Positions 2,873 through 54,913 of a stretch of DNA of 64,000 bases are shown here, in pieces (positions within the stretch are counted from its first letter, which is position 1; every line of letters begins with the position of its first letter). The DNA comes from Thermostichus lividus PCC 6715 (lineage in GTDB: Bacteria; Cyanobacteriota; Cyanobacteriia; Thermosynechococcales; Thermosynechococcaceae), in assembly GCF_002754935.1 (NCBI RefSeq), contig NZ_CP018092.1:2524501-2588500 (forward strand), given 5' to 3'. Both the position numbers and the translations under genes were made by a program. The notes under the pieces are model-generated. The model had not been told where the DNA came from and searched no databases. It saw only the letters and a list, made by a program, of their open reading frames with translations.

Positions 2873-5524
2873 ATGACTGCCACCACCAGCTATGCACCGG
2901 TCAAGGATTTGACGGGGTTAGAAGCACTCATCCAGCGCGTCAAAGACGCCCAAGCACGCTACGCCCAGTTTACCCAAGCCCAAGTCGATCATATTTTTCA
3001 TCAGGCTGCAATGGCCGCTAACCAAGCCCGCATCCCCCTTGCCAAGGCTGCGGTTGCCGAAACTGGCATGGGGCTTGTCGAAGATAAAGTGATTAAAAAC
3101 CACTTTGCCTCAGAGTTTATTTACAACAAGTACAAAGAGGAAAAAACCTGTGGGGTGATTGAAGATGATCCCCTCTTTGGCATCCAAAAAATTGCTGAAC
3201 CCGTAGGCATTGTGGCGGGGGTGGTGCCGGTCACCAATCCCACCTCGACCACGATTTTCAAAGCCCTGATTTGCCTGAAAACTCGTAATGGCATTATCTT
3301 TTCTCCCCATCCTCGTGCCAAAGCCTGTACGGCTGAGGCCGCCAAGATTGTCCTAGAGGCAGCAGTGGCGGCGGGTGCCCCTGCTGACATCATTGGCTGG
3401 ATTGATGAACCCACCATTGAATTGTCGCAGGCACTCATGCAACACCCTGAGATCAAGCTGATTTTGGCAACGGGTGGGCCGGGGATGGTTAAGGCCGCCT
3501 ACTCCTCCGGCCATCCCGCCATTGGGGTGGGGGCTGGCAATACCCCTGCCCTCATTGATGCCACTGCCGATATTGCCACCGCTGTTAGCTCGATTTTGCT
3601 CAGTAAGTCCTTTGACAACGGCATGATTTGTGCATCGGAGCAGTCAGTCATTGTGGTTGATGACGTGTATGAGGCAGTGAAAGCCGAATTTCAACGGCGG
3701 GGCGGCTATATCCTCAAACCAGAGGAGCAAGAGCGGGTTGGGCAACTCATTTTGAAAGATGGCCGCCTGAACGCCGCTATTGTCGGTCAGTCAGCGTCTC
3801 GTATTGCTGCTATGGCTGGCATTGAGGTACCCCCACAGACGCGGGTGCTGTTGGCAGAGGTTACCGAGATTGGTGTCCAAGAGCCGTTTGCCTACGAAAA
3901 ACTGTGTCCGATCTTGGCACTCTACCGCGCTCCCCAGTTCCATAAAGGGGTTGAGATGGCAGCGCAGCTAGTCAACTTTGGAGGGATGGGGCACACGTCC
4001 GTTCTCTATACCGATCCCCGTAATCAAGATGATATTGCCTACTTTAAGTATCGGATGCAAACTGCACGGGTACTCATTAACACGCCGTCTTCCCAAGGGG
4101 CGATCGGGGATCTGTATAACTTTAAGCTGGATCCCTCCTTAACACTGGGCTGCGGCACGTGGGGCGGCAACATCATTTCCGAAAACGTCGGCCCCCATCA
4201 TTTGCTGAATATCAAAACCGTGAGCGATCGCCGCGAAAATATGCTTTGGTTCCGGGTGCCACCTAAAATTTACTTCAAACCTGGGTGCTTACCTGTGGCA
4301 CTGCGGGATTTAGACGGCAAACAACGCGCCTTTTTAATTACCGATAAACCCCTTTTTGACCTAGGTATTACCGATCCCATTACCCATGTCCTTGAGGAAA
4401 TGGGGATCAAACACGATATTTTCCACGAGGTAGAGCCAGATCCCACCCTGAGCACGGTTAACCGTGGCCTTGCCTTGCTTCGACAGTATCAGCCAGATGT
4501 CATCATTGCCGTTGGTGGTGGCTCCCCCATGGATGCAGCCAAAGTCATGTGGCTTTTGTACGAGCATCCTGAGGTCGAGTTTGACGGCTTGGCCATGCGC
4601 TTCATGGATATCCGCAAGCGGGTCTATCAATTGCCTCCCTTAGGACAAAAAGCCATCATGGTCGCCATTCCTACCACCTCGGGTACCGGCTCAGAAGTCA
4701 CCCCCTTTGCTGTTGTCACCGATGACCGCGTGGGGATTAAGTATCCCTTAGCTGATTACGCCTTAACCCCCACGATGGCCATTGTGGATCCTGAGTTGGT
4801 GCTGCACATGCCGAAAAAACTCACGGCCTACGGTGGCATTGATGCCCTCACCCACGCGTTGGAGTCTTACGTGTCGGTACTGTCCACGGAATTTACCGAA
4901 GGATTAGCCCTAGAAGCCATTAAGCTGCTGTTTGCCTACCTGCCACGCGCCTACCGCCATGGGGCTGCCGATCCAGAAGCGCGCGAAAAAGTGCACTATG
5001 CCGCTACCATCGCGGGGATGGCCTTTGCCAATGCCTTTTTGGGGGTGTGTCACTCCATGGCGCACAAGCTCGGATCTACCTTCCATGTCCCCCATGGTCT
5101 AGCCAATGCCCTGTTAATTTCCCATGTCATTCGCTATAACGCGACGGATGCTCCCCTGAAACAGGCAATCTTCCCGCAGTATAAGTATCCGCAGGCCAAA
5201 GAACGCTATGCCCAGATTGCCGATGCGTTGCACCTAGGGGGTGAAACGGCAGAGGAAAAAGTCGAACGGCTGATTGGGGCGATCGAAGACCTGAAAGCTC
5301 AGCTAGAGATTCCAGCTACCATTAAGGAAACACTGCATAGTGAAGATCAAATTTTTTACGATCAAGTAGCAGAAATGGCAGAGCTAGCCTTTGACGATCA
5401 GTGTACGGGAGCCAATCCCCGCTACCCGCTCATTCAGGATCTGAAGGAGCTTTACACCCTTGCCTATATGGGGTGCCGCTTAGAGGCCGCAGCCTATCAT
5501 CCCGAACATTCATCAACCGCTTAG
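2873..5524 (+). CDS. adhE: Bifunctional acetaldehyde-CoA/alcohol dehydrogenase
   Basis: This is a full-length 883-residue AdhE. The N-terminal half is an acetylating aldehyde dehydrogenase with the catalytic cysteine C253 in FDNGMICASEQ and the nucleotide-binding segment GVGAGNTPA. A linker leads to an iron-dependent alcohol dehydrogenase with GGGSPMDAAK, TSGTGSEVTP and the metal-site histidines of GVCHSMAHKLGS and HVPHGLANA. It reduces acetyl-CoA to acetaldehyde and then ethanol, reoxidising NADH during fermentation. GGAG lies just upstream of the ATG. Its 3' end, from about codon 852 on, exists as a second diverged copy at 38166-38337 in opposite orientation. An IS-type right end begins 57 bp after the stop. 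Confidence 0.96.
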   Translation: MTATTSYAPVKDLTGLEALIQRVKDAQARYAQFTQAQVDHIFHQAAMAANQARIPLAKAAVAETGMGLVEDKVIKNHFASEFIYNKYKEEKTCGVIEDDPLFGIQKIAEPVGIVAGVVPVTNPTSTTIFKALICLKTRNGIIFSPHPRAKACTAEAAKIVLEAAVAAGAPADIIGWIDEPTIELSQALMQHPEIKLILATGGPGMVKAAYSSGHPAIGVGAGNTPALIDATADIATAVSSILLSKSFDNGMICASEQSVIVVDDVYEAVKAEFQRRGGYILKPEEQERVGQLILKDGRLNAAIVGQSASRIAAMAGIEVPPQTRVLLAEVTEIGVQEPFAYEKLCPILALYRAPQFHKGVEMAAQLVNFGGMGHTSVLYTDPRNQDDIAYFKYRMQTARVLINTPSSQGAIGDLYNFKLDPSLTLGCGTWGGNIISENVGPHHLLNIKTVSDRRENMLWFRVPPKIYFKPGCLPVALRDLDGKQRAFLITDKPLFDLGITDPITHVLEEMGIKHDIFHEVEPDPTLSTVNRGLALLRQYQPDVIIAVGGGSPMDAAKVMWLLYEHPEVEFDGLAMRFMDIRKRVYQLPPLGQKAIMVAIPTTSGTGSEVTPFAVVTDDRVGIKYPLADYALTPTMAIVDPELVLHMPKKLTAYGGIDALTHALESYVSVLSTEFTEGLALEAIKLLFAYLPRAYRHGAADPEAREKVHYAATIAGMAFANAFLGVCHSMAHKLGSTFHVPHGLANALLISHVIRYNATDAPLKQAIFPQYKYPQAKERYAQIADALHLGGETAEEKVERLIGAIEDLKAQLEIPATIKETLHSEDQIFYDQVAEMAELAFDDQCTGANPRYPLIQDLKELYTLAYMGCRLEAAAYHPEHSSTA

Positions 5525-5581
5525 GCGATTTGCCCCTAGCTACACTTCCGGCAAAAAGAGCAAATCAGGATTTGCCAATAT

Positions 5582-5622
5582 TTGACACTCCCACCACCTA
5601 AAGGTGGGGGATTCTTACGCAG
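5582..5622 (-). repeat. Solo right end of an IS200/IS605-type element
   Basis: The minus strand shows a CCCCCACC-TTTA-GGTGGTGGG hairpin ending in GGAGTGTCAA, the same terminus as the element at 206. No gene or left end remains. The sequence to its left matches the stray adhE fragment at 38166 exactly up to this boundary, which fixes the insertion point at 5581/5582. Confidence 0.55.
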
Positions 5623-6027
5623 TCCATAAACGGACTCATAAAGGCGCTGTCAAGACGCCCCTACACAGTTCCGTGTTCCAGCTAGCATTACAGTGCAGCG
5701 GATTGACGGGCGATCGGGGCTGCGTTGAAGATCTCTGCAACTGCTGATCTTGGCCGTTAGGTAGCTTGAGCGATTGTTTGGGTGTTGAGCCAACTGCCAT
5801 TCATCCTTATCAAGAAGCAACTTGGTATGAGATGGCTGCGATCGCCAAGCCCAATCTCTAATATTCGATCAGTTGAGATTAACTGCGATGCCGCATCTGC
5901 TTTTGGAAAGATCTGCAAAGGAACCTTTAGCAGATGCCGCTGTGATGCTGTTGTATTGCCCCACTCAGATACATTGGCGGTGGAGCGATATAATTTGCCT
6001 CGTGAAGATGCCCCGTGGAGGAACCGC
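5623..6027. other. Intergenic region between adhE and the ABC permease
   Basis: The reading frame of the permease stays open back to 5782, but this part lacks membrane character and the well-placed start is at 6028. A short frame (about 5745-5861) translates to the protein-like tail IHPYQEATWYEMAAIAKPNL followed by TAA. It could be the last piece of a lost gene; I do not recognise the family. Nothing else can be supported. Confidence 0.35.
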
Positions 6028-15286: not shown

Positions 15287-15333
15287 GTAAACTACTCCCA
15301 GCTAAAGCAGGGAGCTTTTAGTAGCCCTGCAGT
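15287..15333 (-). repeat. Solo right end of the TTCAC-targeting tnpB/miniature element family
   Basis: The minus strand reads GGGCTACTAAAAGCTCCC, then a hairpin around CTGCTTTAGCTGGGAG, and ends AGTTTAC. It is nearly identical to the right ends of the 222-bp elements at 20794 and 36683. No left end is present. Its inner edge abuts the truncated cas3 fragment, so a larger insertion or deletion took place here. Confidence 0.7.
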
Positions 15334-19819: not shown

Positions 19820-19892
19820 CGGACGTGGAGGGATTCGAACCCCCGACCCTCAGAACCGGAATCTGATGCTCTATCCACTGAGCCACACGTCC
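19820..19892 (-). tRNA. tRNA-Arg, anticodon CCG
   Basis: The minus strand gives a 73-nt cloverleaf. The acceptor arms GGACGTG and CACGTCC pair, with discriminator G. The anticodon stem CAGA/TCTG encloses the loop TTCCGGT, giving anticodon CCG for CGG codons. The T-arm has GGTTCGAATCC. CCA is not encoded. Downstream of its 3' end stands the coiled-coil mini-operon, a typical place for inserted cargo. Confidence 0.95.
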
Positions 19893-20630: not shown

Positions 20631-21096
20631 TAGTGTTATGGGAGGTCTCAGATTCAATGGTACTGCTTGGGCAAACGGTGGCTTCTTCCCATTCGCAGAT
20701 GGCAGCGTGTTCCGTTTGAGCCGCGGCACTGGTGACCAAGGTTGTGATTTCGCGGGGAGAAAACCCTTCCTCTAGGAGCTCCATATAGATAGGGTAAACT
20801 ACTCCCAGCTAAAGCAGGGAGCTTTTAGTAGCCCTGCAGTTAGCAAGCCAACCACGAGCCTCTGGGGTGGTTTACAACACCCCCAATCGACCGTTACCAG
20901 TGCCTTAAACAACCGTTTCTGGTGTCCGCAGTACAATTATAACCTAAGGCAACTAAAGTTGCTAAAGGAGCTTTCCTCCCCGTACTTCAGTGCGGGGCTT
21001 CCAGCCATACCCGATGTGAAGATTGCGCTGTAATTCTTTGAAGATGGCACGGGCACGATCGGTGTAGCGAAAATTTTGATCAAACAGGCTAGCCAT
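20623..21096 (-). pseudogene. Small gene upstream of livF, interrupted by a 222-bp element
   Basis: The frame starts at ATG 21096 (MASLFDQNFRYTDRAR), enters the element after ...LQRNLH, and resumes at 20793 as PIYMELLEEGFSPREIT, ending in TAA at 20623. Removing exactly 222 bp gives an uninterrupted 83-residue protein whose stop overlaps the livF GTG start. The restored protein is mostly helical and soluble, with an acidic C-terminus. No family is recognised. The exact repair and the coupling to livF argue that this was a real gene. Confidence 0.65.
20794..21015 (-). mobile_element. 222-bp miniature element (TnpB-related), copy A
   Basis: On the minus strand it starts ATCGGGTATGGCTGG directly after TTCAC (21020-21016) and ends AGTTTAC at 20794. 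Left end: hairpin CCCCGCACTGAAGTACGGGG. Right end: hairpin CTCCCTGCTTTAGCTGGGAG. The same 222-bp length and sequence occur at 36683-36904. The left end is nearly the same as in the 1290-bp tnpB elements, and the 3' 100 bp align with the end of tnpB. No target duplication is seen, as expected for IS200/IS605 transposition. It encodes no protein of its own. Confidence 0.85.
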
Positions 21097-30821: not shown

Positions 30822-32111
30822 GTAAACTTCCCCTGACTGAAGTCAGGGGCTTTCAGTAGCCCTGAGCCTGTTATGTTCTGCAAGAGAACAAGACAGACCC
30901 GAGCCTCTAGGCTGGTTTACGACAGCCCCCAAAAGCGCAATTACACTAGCACCATTGAAATCTGCGTCTCCTGTCCAGCCACAATGCCCACACTTAAACT
31001 GCTTCCCAGTGCGATAGGACTGCTTTGGGTCGGGGTAAATATGCAGGCATCTGTGGCAAGTTTGACTACTGTAGCGAGGATTAACTAGCACTATTCCCAC
31101 ACCTGCTTTGAGTGCCTTGTAGCTAATGAAGCTACGCAGTTGGTAAAACGCCCAACTGTTGGCACGCCTACGCTCTGTTTTAGAACGAGGTACTTGATTA
31201 GTGCGCTCCCGTATCCCTGTCAGGTCTTCCAAAGCAATAACACTGCCCGTTGCTTTTGCCCTTGCCACAATGGTCTTAGAAATGCAGTGGTTCACCCATG
31301 CCTGAAAGCGTCTCTCCCTGCCAGATAGCCGTTTCACCAGTTCCCGACATCTACGCCTAGAACTGCGTGTGCCTTTACTGGCTTTCTGCTGGAGTACCGC
31401 CCTCAGTTTGGAGTAGTGGTCTCGTACCTTAGTTAACTGCTGTCCATGCCAGTTGTCTCCTTCCGATGTATGTGCAATGTCTGTCCTACCAAAGTCAACG
31501 CCCAAAACCCCATGTCCAGTCTGAGGTTCTGGCAATTCTTCCTTTACTTGGATGTGGATATAAAACTTACCATCTTTGCGTTTGCAGAGAGTGGCAGAAG
31601 TAGGCTTCTTGCCCTTGAGTTTTTCTATCTGGTAGTTACCCACCACTAAGGGAATGCGTTCCCGTCCGTCTAGGGTGGAGAGGCTAACGCATTGTTCTTT
31701 CGCTCTGTAGTCAAACAGGCGAGCATCATAATCCACAGAAGTAGCCCTGAATTCCTTAACCTTTCCCACCTTGCGGTTAGCGGCAACTCTGGCACAAGCC
31801 CTGACAGCCAAGTTAGCGGTTAAGCCGAATTGCTGTCGTACTGCTCTGTAAACTTCTTTCTGAATACGGTTCTTGTTAGTAATGCTGGGGCAAATGGTAC
31901 TGTTGATGTATCTGCAAGCCTCAGCGAAGCCCTGCAGAACTTGGTCTAGCTTGACAATTTGCTCTGCAGTGGGATTTAGTTGACAGACAATGGTCAGTAT
32001 TTGTTGTGGCATGAGTTCATTTTATGCGCCTAAATGGTAATATGGCAACTGAAGTTGCTAAAGGAGCTTTCCTCCTCGTACTGAAGTACGGGGCTTCCAG
32101 CCCTACCCGTT
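30822..32111 (-). mobile_element. 1290-bp tnpB element (IS200/IS605 group, no tnpA), copy 1
   Basis: On the minus strand the element starts AACGGGTAGGGCTGG directly after TTCAC (32116-32112). It contains a left-end hairpin near CGTACTTCAGTACG, tnpB, and a right-end hairpin CCCCTGACTTCAGTCAGGGG, and ends AAGTTTAC at 30822. Copy 2 at 53624 has the same 1290-bp length and about a dozen base differences. Removing the element places TTCAC next to TAATTACTCTC and makes the upstream gene end ...YDIH-stop. TnpA must come from elsewhere. Confidence 0.9.
30843..32012 (-). CDS. tnpB: TnpB RNA-guided DNA nuclease, copy 1
   Basis: The intact 389-residue protein has the RuvC residues D173 (GVDFGR), E262 (ALEDLTGIRER) and D351 (DADFNGA), and a zinc finger with C319/C322 and C341/C344. 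TnpB is the ancestor of Cas12 nucleases. It uses a guide RNA from the element's right end and cuts next to a target motif equal to the insertion flank, here predicted TTCAC (inference). The 3' end of the gene overlaps the presumed guide-RNA scaffold, which ends at 30822. It differs from copy 2 by two residues I can see (D/N at 115, L/V at 160). Confidence 0.93.
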   Translation of the reverse strand: MPQQILTIVCQLNPTAEQIVKLDQVLQGFAEACRYINSTICPSITNKNRIQKEVYRAVRQQFGLTANLAVRACARVAANRKVGKVKEFRATSVDYDARLFDYRAKEQCVSLSTLDGRERIPLVVGNYQIEKLKGKKPTSATLCKRKDGKFYIHIQVKEELPEPQTGHGVLGVDFGRTDIAHTSEGDNWHGQQLTKVRDHYSKLRAVLQQKASKGTRSSRRRCRELVKRLSGRERRFQAWVNHCISKTIVARAKATGSVIALEDLTGIRERTNQVPRSKTERRRANSWAFYQLRSFISYKALKAGVGIVLVNPRYSSQTCHRCLHIYPDPKQSYRTGKQFKCGHCGWTGDADFNGASVIALLGAVVNQPRGSGLSCSLAEHNRLRATESP

Positions 32112-36499: not shown

Positions 36500-38212
36500 A
36501 TGCTGCACCACCGTTCCCTGTGGGCAGGCCTGCTGTGCGCGGTAGGCACCTTCTTACCCGCCTCAGCCCTCGGCCAAATTATCCCAGACCCCAACGGTAC
36601 GGGCACCCACGTCACCCAAACCGGCCAACAGTTCGACATCAGCGGCGGCACCTTTTCAGGTAATGGTCAGAACCTCTTTCACATCGGGTAGGGCTGGAAG
36701 CCCCGTACTTCAGTGCGGGGAGGAAAGCTCCTTTAGCAACTTCAGTTGTTTTAGGTTATAATTGTACTGCGGACACCAGAAACGGTTGTTCAAGGCACTG
36801 GTAACGGTCGATTGGGGGTGTTGTAAACCACCCCAGAGGCTCGCGGTTGGCTTGCTAACTGCAGGGCTACTGAAAGCTCCCTGCTTTAGCTGGGAGTAGT
36901 TTACCTCTTCCGTGACTTTGGCCTCAGTCAAGGACAAATTGCTAACTTCCTCTCGAACCCCCACGTCCGCAATATCCTCGCTGGCGTGAATGGCGGCAAT
37001 GCGAGCTACATTAATGGCCTCATTCAAGTCAGTGGCGGCACTAGTAATCTCTATCTAATGAACCCCGCTGGCATTGTCTTTGGTTCCAATGCGCGCTTAA
37101 ATGTCCCCGCTGCCTTTCATGCCAGTACCGCCTCTCGGGTTCATTTTGAAGGCGGGGTCTTTGACCTCTTTAGTCCTAGTAATACCTACGCGACTCTCCT
37201 CGGCAACCCCACCGGCTTTGAATTCAACAGCAAAGGAATTCTGATTAATGAAGGACACCTGAGGGTGAAGGAGGGGCAACAACTGACCCTGATGGCGCAT
37301 CAAGTGATTAATACCGGGACAGTAGCGGCACCGGGGGGCAGGGTCACAGTACAAGCGGTGCCGGAGACAGGGATGGTGCGGGTCTCGCAGGATGGGATGA
37401 TTCTCAGTTTAGAGATTCCGCAGGAGCGCATTACCGGCGAGATTACTGCGGTTGATTTGCCCACGTTATTGACGGGAAGCACCCCTGAGCAGCGGGTAAA
37501 TAGCGTGATTCAAAATCCCGATGGCTCGATTGCTCTCGTCCATGACCCAAACAAAGTAAGCATTCCAATGCAGGGAGCCACAGCGGTCGTGGGTGGGACG
37601 ATTGATGTGTCGCATCCAACTGGGATTGGCGGCAGTGTGACTGTCTTGGCCAATCAGAATATTGCGGTGGTTGGAGCGAACATTAATGCATCTGGGAGGA
37701 CGGGTGGTGGCACGGTTTTAGTTGGAGGTGATTATCTCGGGGGAACAGCGGGTACAGGTCGCCTAGATAGTAGTTTGAATGCCCAGAACCTCTTTGTGGA
37801 CAGCAACACCGTGATGAATGCGGATGCACTCACGAATGGCAATGGCGGCACGGTGATTAATTGGGCAGATAACAGCACTCAATTCCATGGCACGATTACA
37901 GCGCGGGGTGGAGCTTTAGGGGGTGATGGCGGGTTTGTCGAAACCTCTGGGCGAGAGCTACTGAGTGTGACAGGTAGTGTCGATGCTAGTGCGCCCCTTG
38001 GTAAGCCAGGGTTATGGTTGCTTGACCCTCACAATGTCACAATCACTAATACCAGTACGTCCAATGGCAGCTTTAGTGGTGGTAGGTTTGGTCAGGAGTC
38101 AACAGACTCAATACTTGCTGAAGCACTGTGCGAGTTTGCAGGGGACGAGCAGATTATCAATCTTGAGATATTGGCAAATCCTGATCTGCTCTTTTTGCCG
38201 GAGTGTAGATAG
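36500..38212 (+). pseudogene. Filamentous-haemagglutinin-like secreted protein, interrupted and truncated
   Basis: The ATG at 36500 opens a signal peptide (LWAGLLCAVGTFLPASALGQ). The gene is broken after ...GQNLFH by a 222-bp element (36683-36904) and resumes as LFRDFGLSQGQIANFLSNPH. Excision restores the frame exactly. The haemagglutination-activity domain follows (GGTSNLYLMNPAGIVFGSNA), then beta-helix repeats. The true sequence ends near 38165, where a copy of the adhE 3' end begins; the last codons belong to that. Family members are normally much longer, so the C-terminus is lost. Role in secretion or adhesion is known for the family only. Confidence 0.8.
36683..36904 (+). mobile_element. 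222-bp miniature element (TnpB-related), copy B
   Basis: It starts ATCGGGTAGGGCTGG after TTCAC (36678-36682) and ends AGTTTAC at 36904. It has the same length as copy A at 20794 and only a few differences. It interrupts the haemagglutinin gene. The inner 3' part (GTAAACCACCCCAGAGGCTCGCGG region) aligns with the end of tnpB in the 1290-bp elements (GTAAACCAGCCTAGAGGCTCGGG), so it keeps the probable guide-RNA scaffold while the nuclease gene is gone. Confidence 0.87.
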
Positions 38213-38337
38213 CGGCAAGTCGCCTAAGGGGTTGATGAATGTTCGGGATGATAGGCTGCGGCCTCTAAGCGACACCCCATATAGGCACCCATATAGGCAA
38301 GGGTGTAAAGCTTCTGTAGATCCCGAATGAAGCGTTG
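38166..38337 (-). pseudogene. Stray copy of the adhE 3' end
   Basis: The minus strand reads RDLQKLYTLAYMGAYMGCRL, then EAAAYHPEHSSTP and TAG at 38224, which matches the last codons of AdhE (RDLQ/QDLK...STA). It includes a 12-bp in-frame duplication (YMGA). Beyond the stop, similarity goes on for about 57 bp to 38166, where the match ends exactly where an IS right end begins in the intact adhE copy (5581/5582). The upstream part of the gene is absent. It is a translocated fragment, not an independent gene. Confidence 0.8.
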
Positions 38338-41553: not shown

Positions 41554-41597
41554 GCTATAACTCCATGCCTGTGCAACGCAGACAAATAGAGTGAACC

Positions 41598-41705
41598 GCA
41601 GTAGGTAGGCATTCTGGCTTAGGGATCGCTCCCCTCACAGCTGCGGCACAGCCCCAGATTTACACTGGTGTTTCCCTACAAACTGCTCTTCACGGTTAGC
41701 CTTCC
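41598..41705 (-). promoter_or_regulatory. Cobalamin (B12) riboswitch
   Basis: On the minus strand the leader of cbiX shows GGGAAACACCAGTGTAAATC, then GGGGCTGTGCCGCAGCTGTG and AAGCCAGAATGCCTACC. These match the conserved core of cobalamin riboswitches (GGGAA-GGTG-AATC, GCTG-CCGC-CTGT and the B12 box). Binding adenosylcobalamin would be expected to lower cbiX expression. It ends about 45 nt before the start codon. Confidence 0.88.
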
Positions 41706-41782
41706 AATTCTAACGAGCGTATTGTGGCTCTGTCTATGCGGGGGGTGGGGACTCGCTACCCCCTAGACCGCCTCCTGTGTGT

Positions 41783-51692: not shown

Positions 51693-53627
51693 ATGGCCAA
51701 CAAGATCATTGTTAGGTCGGTTCTTGAGGATTTGTTGGCACAGATCCCCCGTTTGCGATCGCAGTTGTACTTTAAGACCTCCCTCACTGCCTTATCCCAT
51801 GCAATGGAAGATCAGGTTTTGGCCAGTGCTGATACCCCAATTATTATTGCCTGTTTTCAGCGGGAGCGGTTTTATCGGCAAGAAGCGCATCGCTATCAGC
51901 GCATTGCCAGCAAATCAGATCAGGTTTATGTTTTAGCCGCACCGGAAACCGAGTTTACAAATTGCTCCGGAGACTACGAAACCATTGCCTTTGATCCGCA
52001 GGATGCCCTCAGTCAGGAGTGGCACTTGGTGGTGCTTAGCCCTAACTACAGCACCTGTTTAATCTGTCGTGAGGTGCGGCGATCGCCCACGGCAACCCGA
52101 CCAGATGTGCTGCCCCCCCTCGATCAGGCGCGGCGCTTTGAAGGGATTTGGACGTTTGACCGCGAGGTTACGGCCACAGCGGCAACAATGCTGCTGCAAC
52201 GAATTCAGGAATACCGCCCAGAGCTATGCCAAAAAGTAAGTACAGCGTTGAGCATGGTGGCGCAGTTTCGCTCCCGCGAGGGATGTAGCGGCGACCCGGC
52301 TCCCTTCGCCGATCGCCTAGTCACCTATCTGCAAGCGGGGCAATACAAGCAAATTAAAGCCTATCGCCAAATTGCGATCCAAGAGCGCAAGGAACGCCTC
52401 ACCAATGCGATGACCACTACAATTCGTAACTCCCTGAACCCAGCGGAAATTTTGACCCAAGCAGTAGCGGAACTTGGCACAGTGCTAGAGAGCGATCGCT
52501 GTTTGATCTACCGCTGCCGCAGTACCGATAGTCGGGTGCGCATTGAGTACGAGTACACCACAGCAGGAACCCCCTCCCTGCGTCATCAGTACTGGCCTGT
52601 GGCCGAGCATCCCTACACGCAGCAAGCCCTAGCCCATCAACAGGCGGTGCAGGTCGATGATCTGAGGGCGGATCCGCGCTGGCAACATCCTGAGGAGGCG
52701 AAGTATTTTAAGCCCTTAGAAACTGCCGCTGTTCAAGCCCTCTTGCTTGCCCCTGTGCTTTACCAAGGGCGCTTACTGGGAATGGTAGAACTGCACCGCA
52801 CCACCCCAGTACCTTGGCACGATATGGATGCGGAACTGGTGGCGGCGATCGCCATCCAAGTGGGGGTTGCCCTCATTCAAGCGGAAGCCTATGCCGATCT
52901 CGAAGAACTAAACGCCCAGCTAGAAGCCCTCGATCGCACCCGCAGCAACTTGATTGCCATTACCGGCCACGAACTGCGCACCCCCCTTTCGACCATCCAA
53001 ATCTGCCTCGAAAGCCTCGCCAGTGAACCGGACATGGATCCGGAACTGCGGCAAGTGATGCTGAGTACGGCTCTTGCCGATGCCGAGCGGATGCGCAAAC
53101 TCATTCAGGACTTTCTTACCCTGTCCCAACTAGAGAGTGGCCGTGTCCAGTGGCGACCTGAACCCTTGCCCATTCAGGAACTGGTGGATTTAGCCCTCAG
53201 CAGCCTGCGCACGCCGAAAGAACAACTGCCCAGCATTCATGCCACCCTCCCCCAAGAGTTGCCCCTTGTTCGAGCCGATGGGGAATGGCTGGTGGAGGTA
53301 CTCTCTAAGCTGCTGGACAACGCCTGTAAGTTTACAGAGCAGTCTGGCCAAGTCTCGATTGTGGCCACACCGCGCCAAGATGGGTTACTGGAGGTAACCA
53401 TTGCCGATACAGGCCGCGGCATTGAGCCGGATCGGCTGGAAACTATTTTTGACCGTTTTTACCAAGAAGAGGGCGCACTGCGACGATCCGCGGGGGGCAC
53501 TGGTCTGGGGTTGGCGATCTGCCGCCAAATCATTACAAACCTCGGCGGGCAAATTTGGGCAGAGTCCGCTGGGCGCGATCGCGGCAGTGAATTTCACTTT
53601 ACAATTCCCCTCGCTGACCCCTTGTAA
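51693..53627 (+). CDS. DICT-GAF sensor histidine kinase
   Basis: The 644-residue kinase has an N-terminal DICT-like sensory domain (about 20-160), a GAF domain (about 245-400) with VLESDRCLIYRCRS, a HisKA with H426 in ITGHELRTPLSTIQ, and an HATPase with LLDNACKFT, IADTGRGIEPDRLETIFDRF and GGTGLGLAICRQI. No membrane helix is seen, so it is cytoplasmic. The stop TAA comes from the tnpB element inserted at 53624. The uninserted site would have ended in TGA after the same last residue. No response regulator is adjacent. The sensed signal is unknown. Confidence 0.88.
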   Translation: MANKIIVRSVLEDLLAQIPRLRSQLYFKTSLTALSHAMEDQVLASADTPIIIACFQRERFYRQEAHRYQRIASKSDQVYVLAAPETEFTNCSGDYETIAFDPQDALSQEWHLVVLSPNYSTCLICREVRRSPTATRPDVLPPLDQARRFEGIWTFDREVTATAATMLLQRIQEYRPELCQKVSTALSMVAQFRSREGCSGDPAPFADRLVTYLQAGQYKQIKAYRQIAIQERKERLTNAMTTTIRNSLNPAEILTQAVAELGTVLESDRCLIYRCRSTDSRVRIEYEYTTAGTPSLRHQYWPVAEHPYTQQALAHQQAVQVDDLRADPRWQHPEEAKYFKPLETAAVQALLLAPVLYQGRLLGMVELHRTTPVPWHDMDAELVAAIAIQVGVALIQAEAYADLEELNAQLEALDRTRSNLIAITGHELRTPLSTIQICLESLASEPDMDPELRQVMLSTALADAERMRKLIQDFLTLSQLESGRVQWRPEPLPIQELVDLALSSLRTPKEQLPSIHATLPQELPLVRADGEWLVEVLSKLLDNACKFTEQSGQVSIVATPRQDGLLEVTIADTGRGIEPDRLETIFDRFYQEEGALRRSAGGTGLGLAICRQIITNLGGQIWAESAGRDRGSEFHFTIPLADPL

Positions 53628-54913
53628 ACTTCCCCTGACTGAAGTCAGGGGCTTTCAGTAGCCCTGAGCCTGTTATGTTCTGCAAGAGAACAAGACAGAC
53701 CCGAGCCTCTAGGCTGGTTTACGACAGCCCCCAAAAGCGCAATTACACTAGCACCATTGAAATCTGCGTCTCCTGTCCAGCCACAATGCCCGCACTTAAA
53801 CTGCTTCCCAGTGCGATAGGACTGCTTTGGGTCGGGGTAAATATGCAGGCATCTGTGGCAAGTTTGACTACTGTAGCGAGGATTAACTAGCACTATTCCC
53901 ACACCTGCTTTGAGTGCCTTGTAGCTAATGAAGCTACGCAGTTGGTAAAACGCCCAACTGTTGGCACGCCTACGCTCTGTTTTAGAACGAGGTACTTGAT
54001 TAGTGCGCTCCCGTATCCCTGTCAGGTCTTCCAAAGCAATAACACTGCCCGTTGCTTTTGCCCTTGCCACAATGGTCTTAGAAATGCAGTGGTTCACCCA
54101 TGCCTGAAAGCGTCTCTCCCTGCCAGATAGCCGTTTCACCAGTTCCCGACATCTACGCCTAGAACTGCGTGTGCCTTTACTGGCTTTCTGCTGGAGTACC
54201 GCCCTCAGTTTGGAGTAGTGGTCTCGTACCTTAGTTAACTGCTGTCCATGCCAGTTGTCTCCTTCCGATGTATGTGCAATGTCTGTCCTACCGAAGTCAA
54301 CGCCCAAAACCCCATGTCCAGTCTGAGGTTCTGGCACTTCTTCCTTTACTTGGATGTGGATATAAAACTTACCATCTTTGCGTTTGCAGAGAGTGGCAGA
54401 AGTAGGCTTCTTGCCCTTGAGTTTTTCTATCTGGTAGTTACCCACCACTAAGGGAATACGTTCCCGTCCGTTTAGGGTGGAGAGGCTAACGCATTGTTCT
54501 TTCGCTCTGTAGTCAAACAGGCGAGCATCATAATCCACAGAAGTAGCCCTGAATTCCTTAACCTTTCCCACCTTGCGGTTAGCGGCAACTCTGGCACAAG
54601 CCCTGACAGCCAAGTTAGCGGTTAAGCCGAATTGCTGTCGTACTGCTCTGTAAACTTCTTTCTGAATACGGTTCTTGTTAGTAATGCTGGGGCAAATGGT
54701 ACTGTTGATGTATCTGCAAGCCTCAGCGAAGCCCTGCAGAACTTGGTCTAGCTTGACAATTTGCTCTGCAGTGGGATTTAGTTGACAGACAATGGTCAGT
54801 ATTTGCTGTGGCATGAGTTCATTTTATGCGCCTAAATGGTACTATGGCAACTGAAGTTGCTAAAGGAGCTTTCCTCCCCGCACTGAAGTACGGGGCTTCC
54901 AGCCCTACCCGAT
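53624..54913 (-). mobile_element. 1290-bp tnpB element (IS200/IS605 group, no tnpA), copy 2
   Basis: On the minus strand it starts ATCGGGTAGGGCTGG after TTCAC (54918-54914) and ends AAGTTTAC at 53624. It has the same length as copy 1 and about a dozen differences in 1290 bp. It lies between the histidine kinase and scpA and supplies the kinase stop codon. Low divergence between copies indicates recent movement. Confidence 0.9.
53645..54814 (-). CDS. tnpB: TnpB RNA-guided DNA nuclease, copy 2
   Basis: This intact 389-residue protein is nearly identical to the one at 30843, with the RuvC residues D173, E262 and D351 and both zinc-finger cysteine pairs. The two visible changes are N115 and V160. 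Keeping both copies intact suggests that selection or recent transposition preserves them. The guide-RNA scaffold is expected over its 3' end to 53624, with the kinase 3' end as the following guide on the minus strand (AAGGGGTCAGCGAGGGGAAT). Confidence 0.93.
   Translation of the reverse strand: MPQQILTIVCQLNPTAEQIVKLDQVLQGFAEACRYINSTICPSITNKNRIQKEVYRAVRQQFGLTANLAVRACARVAANRKVGKVKEFRATSVDYDARLFDYRAKEQCVSLSTLNGRERIPLVVGNYQIEKLKGKKPTSATLCKRKDGKFYIHIQVKEEVPEPQTGHGVLGVDFGRTDIAHTSEGDNWHGQQLTKVRDHYSKLRAVLQQKASKGTRSSRRRCRELVKRLSGRERRFQAWVNHCISKTIVARAKATGSVIALEDLTGIRERTNQVPRSKTERRRANSWAFYQLRSFISYKALKAGVGIVLVNPRYSSQTCHRCLHIYPDPKQSYRTGKQFKCGHCGWTGDADFNGASVIALLGAVVNQPRGSGLSCSLAEHNRLRATESP

What the first reader, a model, noticed from the sequence alone, without database searches (positions are those of the whole stretch)
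20794..21015. 222-bp miniature element family that keeps a TnpB guide-RNA-like end but no nuclease gene
Two copies, both exactly 222 bp (20794-21015 and 36683-36904), share the left end of the 1290-bp tnpB elements. Their 3' part (GTAAACCACCCCAGAGGCTC) aligns with the tnpB 3' end/scaffold region (GTAAACCAGCCTAGAGGCTC). Seen directly: length, ends, flanks, alignment. Known: TnpB guide RNA derives from the right end and reads into the flank. Inference: these are non-autonomous elements moved by TnpA in trans, and they could make guide RNAs for the intact TnpB proteins elsewhere in the genome. A guide-only mobile unit would be of interest.
Basis: partly seen in the sequence, partly recalled or inferred. 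Interest (0 to 1): 0.75.

Follow-up and report, generated by a model that had tools for sequence, protein, structure and literature searches.

The report
Guide-RNA-only miniature transposon in hot-spring cyanobacterium
A 222-letter jumping DNA with no genes occurs in 27 full copies in one hot-spring cyanobacterium and carries a complete guide-RNA scaffold of the TnpB gene-cutter family plus a likely promoter, so it may borrow the cutter made by other jumping genes to keep itself in the genome; that the RNA is made and used is still untested.

Summary
The two 222-bp copies belong to a family of 27 full-length copies plus one truncated copy in a single 2.66-Mb chromosome (genus Thermosynechococcus). 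The family was not found in ten congeners or in public genome, viral and plasmid collections. Copies sit after TCAC without target duplication; matching empty sites exist elsewhere. The first 66 bp equal the left end of the resident 1290-bp tnpB elements. The last 94 nt are a complete TnpB omega-RNA scaffold. A covariance model trained only on tnpB-linked scaffolds finds all 28 copies end to end (64-76 bits). The stem and pseudoknot (GTAAAC/GTTTAC) covary across tnpB lineages. Full copies carry a promoter-like TTAGCA-18-TATAAT upstream, a -10 that the tnpB element lacks there. Among copies the scaffold varies less than the middle (3/57 versus 14/63 columns, p = 0.009). Best read as an IS200/IS605 'PATE' kept as a guide-RNA unit: moved by TnpA in trans and restored by TnpB in trans. 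Anatomy, mobility and scaffold integrity are shown; transcription, TnpB loading and the cognate TnpA are inferred. A second miniature family and one solitary element in a congener suggest this recurs. New variant of a known kind.

The parts
36683..36904 (+). Miniature element, copy 2 (full 222 bp), inserted in a two-partner-secretion-domain gene
   Evidence: matching empty site TTTCAC|CTCTTCCGTGACTT in congener genes
20794..21015 (-). Miniature element, copy 1 (full 222 bp)
36679..36682 (+). TCAC target, putative TAM, left of copy 2
   Evidence: TCAC in most copies of the miniature element and in the tnpB-A elements read
21016..21019 (-). TCAC target, putative TAM, left of copy 1
36683..36748 (+). 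Left end with subterminal hairpin; identical to tnpB-A left end
   Evidence: 66/66 identity; 8-bp hairpin
20950..21015 (-). Left end of copy 1
36733..36762 (+). Promoter-like TTAGCA-18-TATAAT upstream of the scaffold
   Evidence: 10/12 match, 0.1 expected in shuffles; both hexamers invariant in the full copies
20936..20965 (-). Same promoter-like pair in copy 1
36811..36904 (+). Complete omega-RNA scaffold of copy 2
   Evidence: covariance model R1, 76.2 bits, 1-113/113
20794..20887 (-). Complete omega-RNA scaffold of copy 1
   Evidence: covariance model R1, 73.5 bits, 1-113/113
36815..36834 (+). Stem 1 (GGGGTG/CACCCC); its loop holds the pseudoknot strand GTAAAC (36823-36828)
36899..36904 (+). 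GTTTAC: pseudoknot 3' strand and right terminus of the element
36839..36867 (+). Stems 2 and 3 (one bulged A); the loop of the tnpB-A version is shortened to CTTG
36905..36924 (+). Predicted guide of copy 2 (right flank)
   Evidence: by analogy with the ISDra2 reRNA, whose last ~16 nt come from the flank (PMC8612924); inference
20774..20793 (-). Predicted guide of copy 1 (right flank)
   Evidence: same inference
53624..54913 (-). tnpB-A element, 1290 bp, no tnpA inside; TnpB CDS 53645-54814 (389 aa), omega-RNA 53624-53734
   Evidence: NF040570 guided_TnpB 192.9 bits, cut-off 100
30822..32111 (-). Second tnpB-A element in the window; CDS 30843-32012, omega-RNA 30822-30932
15287..15331 (-). 45-bp right-end-only micro-element directly after TCAC

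Best explanation
The 222-bp unit is a non-autonomous IS200/IS605 element (a palindrome-associated transposable element) that has kept, besides the two subterminal hairpins needed for movement, a complete TnpB guide-RNA (omega-RNA) scaffold, and carries its own promoter-like site. SHOWN: 27 full copies; TCAC target without duplication; empty sites; left end identical to resident tnpB elements; scaffold with the stem-1/pseudoknot and stem-2/3 architecture of tnpB right ends, maintained by compensatory change between lineages; low variation of the scaffold among copies; invariant TTAGCA-18-TATAAT upstream; resident TnpB genes intact. INFERRED: a Y1 transposase encoded elsewhere in the genome excises and inserts the element in trans. 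RNA starting about position 87 runs through the scaffold, past GTTTAC, into the right flank, giving roughly 136 nt of scaffold-containing RNA plus a guide, about the size of the ISDra2 reRNA. A resident TnpB (family A or B) loads it and cuts the element-free donor site (TCAC + flank), so that the element is copied back from the sister chromosome. The element would thus exploit both proteins of its relatives: TnpA to move and TnpB not to be lost.
For: Copy number and boundaries. Empty sites joining TCAC to the right flank in congener genes, nothing gained or lost at the junction for copy 2. R1, built only from tnpB-linked scaffolds, finds all 28 copies at 64-76 bits, model 1-113. On alignment A5 94.3% of cells pair versus 77.0% in shuffles; 40 double-change cells versus 11.8; slid controls 30-55%. 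Over 14 lineages 96% paired versus 77% when 3' strands are dealt anew, 0 of 10,000. Same predicted fold for the miniature element, tnpB-A and tnpB-B. Scaffold outside the transposition hairpin: 3/57 columns vary versus 14/63 in the middle, Fisher p = 0.009; none of the three breaks a pair. Promoter-like pair 10/12; the tnpB-A element has no TATAAT at that place. TnpB-A and B exceed the guided_TnpB cut-off. ISDra2 parallel: pseudoknot between the stem-1 loop and the nucleotides before the guide, and stem 3b removable (PMC10097598).
Against: No RNA or protein data. The promoter is a consensus match only. Which TnpB would load this scaffold is not established: it is 77/88 alike to tnpB-A's but 80/90 alike to a tnpB lineage of another cyanobacterium. 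The copies are related, so the variability test rests on few independent changes. The three right-end-only 45-bp elements show that movement of right-end DNA does not need the scaffold, and the whole right end could have been inherited passively in a young family. The second miniature family has no good promoter match.
Confidence: 0.58

Rival explanations
1. Ordinary PATE: an internally deleted IS605 relative whose right end happens to include the old omega-RNA. It is moved by TnpA in trans; the scaffold has no present function and looks conserved because the family is young.
For: PATEs made by core deletion of IS605 elements are common in Haloquadratum (PMC3119063), and a PATE-like unit in Halanaerobium keeps 28 nt of left end, 58 nt of tnpB and a 160-nt right end (PMC7290912). 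Most copies are at least 95% alike. No transcript data.
Against: The scaffold varies less than the adjacent middle, with no pair broken in 130-186. Its stem 1 differs from resident tnpB-A and tnpB-B by compensatory, not disruptive, changes. An invariant promoter-like pair lies at the right distance and the middle is not recognisably decayed tnpB.
Confidence: 0.33
2. Decoy: the element makes omega-RNA that occupies TnpB and lowers cutting by the nuclease-encoding elements, a competitor or brake instead of a retention device.
For: 28 scaffold copies outnumber the 12 full-length tnpB-A and tnpB-B genes.
Against: Copies end exactly at the guide boundary after a TCAC target, the layout needed for productive guiding. 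Nothing points specifically to inhibition.
Confidence: 0.05
3. The right-end structure serves only transposition (hairpin DNA for TnpA) and its RNA resemblance is a by-product.
For: The terminal hairpin and GTTTAC are shared with the transposition ends of the tnpB-A and tnpB-B elements.
Against: Stem 1, the GTAAAC loop and stems 2-3 lie upstream of the terminal hairpin, covary across lineages, and are absent from the 45-bp micro-elements that nevertheless inserted at TCAC.
Confidence: 0.04

Closest known systems
Palindrome-associated transposable elements (PATEs) of IS200/IS605, Haloquadratum walsbyi and Halanaerobium hydrogeniformans (PMC3119063, PMC7290912)
   Same: Short, gene-free, subterminal palindromes, no inverted terminal repeats or target duplication, mobilised in trans; the Halanaerobium unit keeps left end + tnpB end + right end
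   Different: Here the retained right end is shown to be a complete, covarying omega-RNA scaffold with its own promoter-like site, in 27 uniform copies; the passages read of those papers do not discuss guide RNA
ISDra2 TnpB omega-RNA / reRNA (PMC8612924, PMC10097598)
   Same: Stem 1 whose loop pairs with the nucleotides before the guide, stems 2-3, terminal hairpin with a UUUA loop, guide taken from the right flank, TAM equal to the transposition target
   Different: No tnpB in the element; the stem-3 loop is cut to a tetraloop (removable stem 3b in ISDra2); TAM would be TCAC instead of TTGAT; RNA not observed
Stand-alone, trans-acting omega-RNAs of IscB (recalled from Altae-Tran et al. 2021; not read here)
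   Same: A guide RNA separated from its nuclease gene
   Different: Different nuclease family; here the guide unit is itself a multi-copy mobile element
TnpB-assisted transposon retention in IS605 elements (Meers et al. 2023; cited within PMC11870625, not held)
   Same: Proposed role: cut the element-free donor site and copy the element back
   Different: There the nuclease gene is in the element; here it would act in trans

Membership tests
IS200/IS605 non-autonomous element (PATE) | Subterminal hairpins, no inverted terminal repeats | tested here: met
   Left 8-bp and right hairpins predicted; sequence
IS200/IS605 non-autonomous element (PATE) | Insertion 3' of a fixed short target, no duplication | tested here: met
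   TCAC in most copies; empty sites
IS200/IS605 non-autonomous element (PATE) | Too short to code for a transposase | tested here: met
   222 bp; stops in the three forward frames read
IS200/IS605 non-autonomous element (PATE) | Y1 transposase available in trans | tested here: inconclusive
   Intact IS200-type tnpA genes present; family C has a related left end but a different right terminus
TnpB omega-RNA (OMEGA guide RNA) | Homology to the tnpB 3' end / right end up to the element terminus | tested here: met
   R1 hits 1-113/113 ending at the terminus
TnpB omega-RNA (OMEGA guide RNA) | Stem 1 with pseudoknot to the nucleotides before the guide; stems 2-3 | tested here: met
   reference architecture PMC10097598
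TnpB omega-RNA (OMEGA guide RNA) | Transcribed into the flank, about 16-nt guide | not testable with these tools
   needs RNA data
TnpB omega-RNA (OMEGA guide RNA) | Bound by TnpB and directing cleavage next to the TAM | not testable with these tools
   needs biochemistry
Classical MITE (DDE transposon derivative) | Terminal inverted repeats and target-site duplication | tested here: not met
   Ends ATCGGG / GTTTAC are not inverted repeats; no duplication
Autonomous IS605 | Carries tnpA and/or tnpB | tested here: not met
   No gene within 222 bp

The most novel reading that the evidence does not exclude
A guide-only selfish element: a transposon reduced to two ends, a promoter and an RNA scaffold, exploiting the transposase of one relative to move and the RNA-guided nuclease of another to avoid loss. 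The layout may have arisen more than once: the family studied here, a second miniature family of about 257 bp in the same genome, and a solitary unit in a congener.
Probability: 0.45. Interest if true: 0.74.

Novelty: new variant of a known kind. Interest (0 to 1): 0.56.

Why it matters
If true, TnpB activity is a shared resource in the cell, and elements can be selected for keeping only the guide. That would give a direct test of the idea that TnpB serves transposon retention, because here retention could be separated from the nuclease gene. It would also supply naturally short, promoter-driven omega-RNAs from a thermophile and a sequence signature (orphan omega-RNA with transposon ends and no tnpB) for finding such elements elsewhere.

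Tried and rejected
(1) Origin of the middle 63 nt from decayed tnpB: not significant against the whole element (p = 0.76) and weak against the collinear stretch (p = 0.04); left open. (2) A simple internal deletion of resident tnpB-A: rejected, because the left end is identical but the right end is closer to a tnpB of Synechococcus sp. M44_DOE_062; a mosaic is more likely. (3) Rfam: no family at gathering threshold over the element. (4) An exact scaffold pattern in GTDB 220 genomes and viral contigs, and a distant search in plasmids: none found; those collections may leave out this genome. (5) Promoter in the second miniature family: none on the element strand. (6) Guide self-targets: for ten joined sites the only other junction-spanning match in the own genome was a paralogue with mismatches at guide positions 1, 5 and 8; weak evidence. 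(7) Alignments A3 and A4 held typing slips in hand-entered rows (an extra G in the miniature-element rows, wrong first letters in two others); replaced by A5/A6 and not used. In A5/A6 an N was put into the stem-1 loop of rows with an 8-nt loop to bring the stems into register. (9) Meers et al. 2023 is not held.

Full report
OBSERVATION. The two stretches named are the same 222-bp sequence in opposite orientation. A search of the whole 2,659,739-bp chromosome finds 27 full-length copies (26 of 222 bp, one of 221) and one copy with its left end replaced. Ten congeners and 18 further members of the family have no copy: only short partial matches of 32-67 bases. The genus is Thermosynechococcus: contig lengths of three congeners equal those published for BP-1, CL-1 and PKUAC-SCTE542 (lengths, table in PMC9403480).

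BOUNDARIES AND MOBILITY. Oriented copies start ATCGGGTAGGGCTGG (first three letters variable) and end GTTTAC. The four bases to the left are TCAC in most copies. The site of window copy 2, CCTCTTTCAC|CTCTTCCGTGACTT, is uninterrupted in related genes of congeners; the site of copy L002 lies uninterrupted, with substitutions, in nine congeners. There is no target duplication. This is IS200/IS605 behaviour, not that of a classical MITE. Of the 27 junctions 11 lie in an open frame of at least 120 codons, against longer frames at control points in the flanks. Copy 2 interrupts a gene with a TPS secretion domain.

ANATOMY. Positions 1-66 are identical to the left end of the 1290-bp tnpB elements, of which the genome holds eight, all with an intact 389-aa frame and no tnpA inside. 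Four tnpB-B elements are about 60% identical in protein and share the GTTTAC terminus. Positions 67-129 are unique to the family. They hold TATAAT at 75-80, which with TTAGCA at 51-56 forms an 18-nt-spaced promoter-like pair (10/12). Neither hexamer varies among the full copies. In tnpB-A the same left end runs into a stretch without TATAAT; another promoter-like pair lies further on, in front of tnpB. Positions 130-222 are the right end.

THE RIGHT END IS A COMPLETE OMEGA-RNA SCAFFOLD. The miniature element, tnpB-A and tnpB-B are predicted to fold alike: a stem-1 hairpin, a long stem with one bulged A, and the terminal hairpin. The stem-1 loop carries GTAAAC, the exact complement of the terminal GTTTAC. 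In 14 lineages from this family of cyanobacteria these strands change together (GTAAAC/GTTTAC, GTAAGC/GCTTAC, GTCAAC/GTTGAC), as does stem 1 (GGGTG/CACCC here, GGCTG/CAGCC in tnpB-A, GGCAG/CTGCC in tnpB-B): 96% paired against a shuffled mean of 77%, none of 10,000 shuffles as high. On the 12-row alignment A5, 94.3% of cells pair against 77.0% shuffled and 30-55% when slid; 11 pairs have a change on both sides. This is the arrangement solved for ISDra2, where the stem-1 loop pairs with the nucleotides before the guide, a UUUA loop closes the last hairpin, and the outer part of stem 3 can be removed (PMC10097598). Here that part is naturally absent: the loop is CTTG.

INDEPENDENT TEST. A covariance model was built only from scaffolds that lie next to a tnpB gene (A6). 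Over eleven genomes it finds all 28 copies, full length, at 64-76 bits (E 1e-17 to 1e-21), below the tnpB-A scaffolds (104-107 bits) and far above noise. In this genome 28 of 59 matches are miniature elements. In the congener G026 eleven of twelve matches coincide with tnpB genes. In G019 one strong match (86 bits, L200) has no detectable tnpB; a left-end-like hairpin lies upstream, so it looks like a solitary element of the same plan.

SELECTION. Among full copies 3 of 57 columns vary in the scaffold outside the terminal hairpin, 14 of 63 in the middle (Fisher p = 0.009), 8 of 56 in most of the left end. None of the three scaffold changes breaks a pair; about 41% of random single changes there would keep all pairs. 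The sample is small and the copies are related, so this is supportive, not conclusive.

ORIGIN. The scaffold is closest to the right end of a tnpB in Synechococcus sp. M44_DOE_062 (80 of 90 aligned positions), which has the same short stem 3. The left end is that of resident tnpB-A. The element is probably a mosaic.

MECHANISM. Shown: a mobile gene-free unit with transposition ends, a complete guide scaffold and a promoter-like site, beside intact TnpB genes (guided_TnpB NF040570, 193 and 198 bits against a cut-off of 100). Inferred: movement by a Y1 transposase in trans; transcription into the flank; loading by TnpB-A or TnpB-B; cutting of the empty donor joint and repair from the sister copy, as proposed for ISDra2 (PMC8612924). 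TnpB is known to make omega-RNA by 5' processing of its own mRNA (PMC10278001); an element without the gene would need its own promoter or read-through, and it has a candidate promoter.

KNOWN AND NEW. Gene-free PATEs derived from IS605 are known, as is at least one that keeps the right end (PMC3119063, PMC7290912). Trans-acting omega-RNAs are known for IscB (from memory). I found no held paper that describes a multi-copy mobile element reduced to ends, promoter and omega-RNA scaffold; the library is partial and the main paper on TnpB retention is not in it. I file this as a new variant of a known kind.

Noticed in passing
L099, L106, L109, L112, L114-L120, L122, L123, L125 (e.g. G000:C1:849774-850036): A second miniature family of about 257 bp after ACAC, ending GTGTCAA; its last ~125 nt match the right end of the two tnpA+tnpB IS605 elements (family C, 1789 bp). 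Two subtypes differ by compensatory changes in the terminal hairpin (CCGAC..GTCGG versus CCACC..GGTGG) and in the stem-1 region.
   Followed up: partly
window 15287-15331 (-); G000:C1:734915-734964; G000:C1:1507707-1507753: Three 45-bp micro-elements consisting only of the right-end hairpin, each directly after TCAC. In the 222-bp element the same stretch is preceded by TAAC, as if TnpA had cut at an internal pseudo-target.
   Followed up: partly
window 5582-5672 (-); also G000:C1:616672-616767 and 889971-890066: Right-end-only pieces of about 91-96 nt of the second miniature family; the window copy lies directly after ACAC.
   Followed up: partly
L025, L032, L038 and family-2 copies compared with their relatives: Hairpin loops occur in both orientations (TTCA versus TGAA, TTTA versus TAAA), as if the palindromes had been inverted by template switching.
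   Followed up: no
   Followed up: partly
L061, L062, L072-L076, L078: Another tnpA+tnpB family: two full copies and six that share one internal deletion inside tnpA, so the deleted form has itself spread.
   Followed up: no
window 36510-38212: Gene with a TPS secretion domain interrupted by the 222-bp element; an uninterrupted paralogue lies at G000:C1:2253064.
   Followed up: partly
window 5461-5556 and 38192-38287: A 96-nt inverted repeat, 91% alike.
   Followed up: no
window 41587-41719 (-) and 19820-19892 (-): Cobalamin riboswitch and a tRNA gene by Rfam.
   Followed up: no
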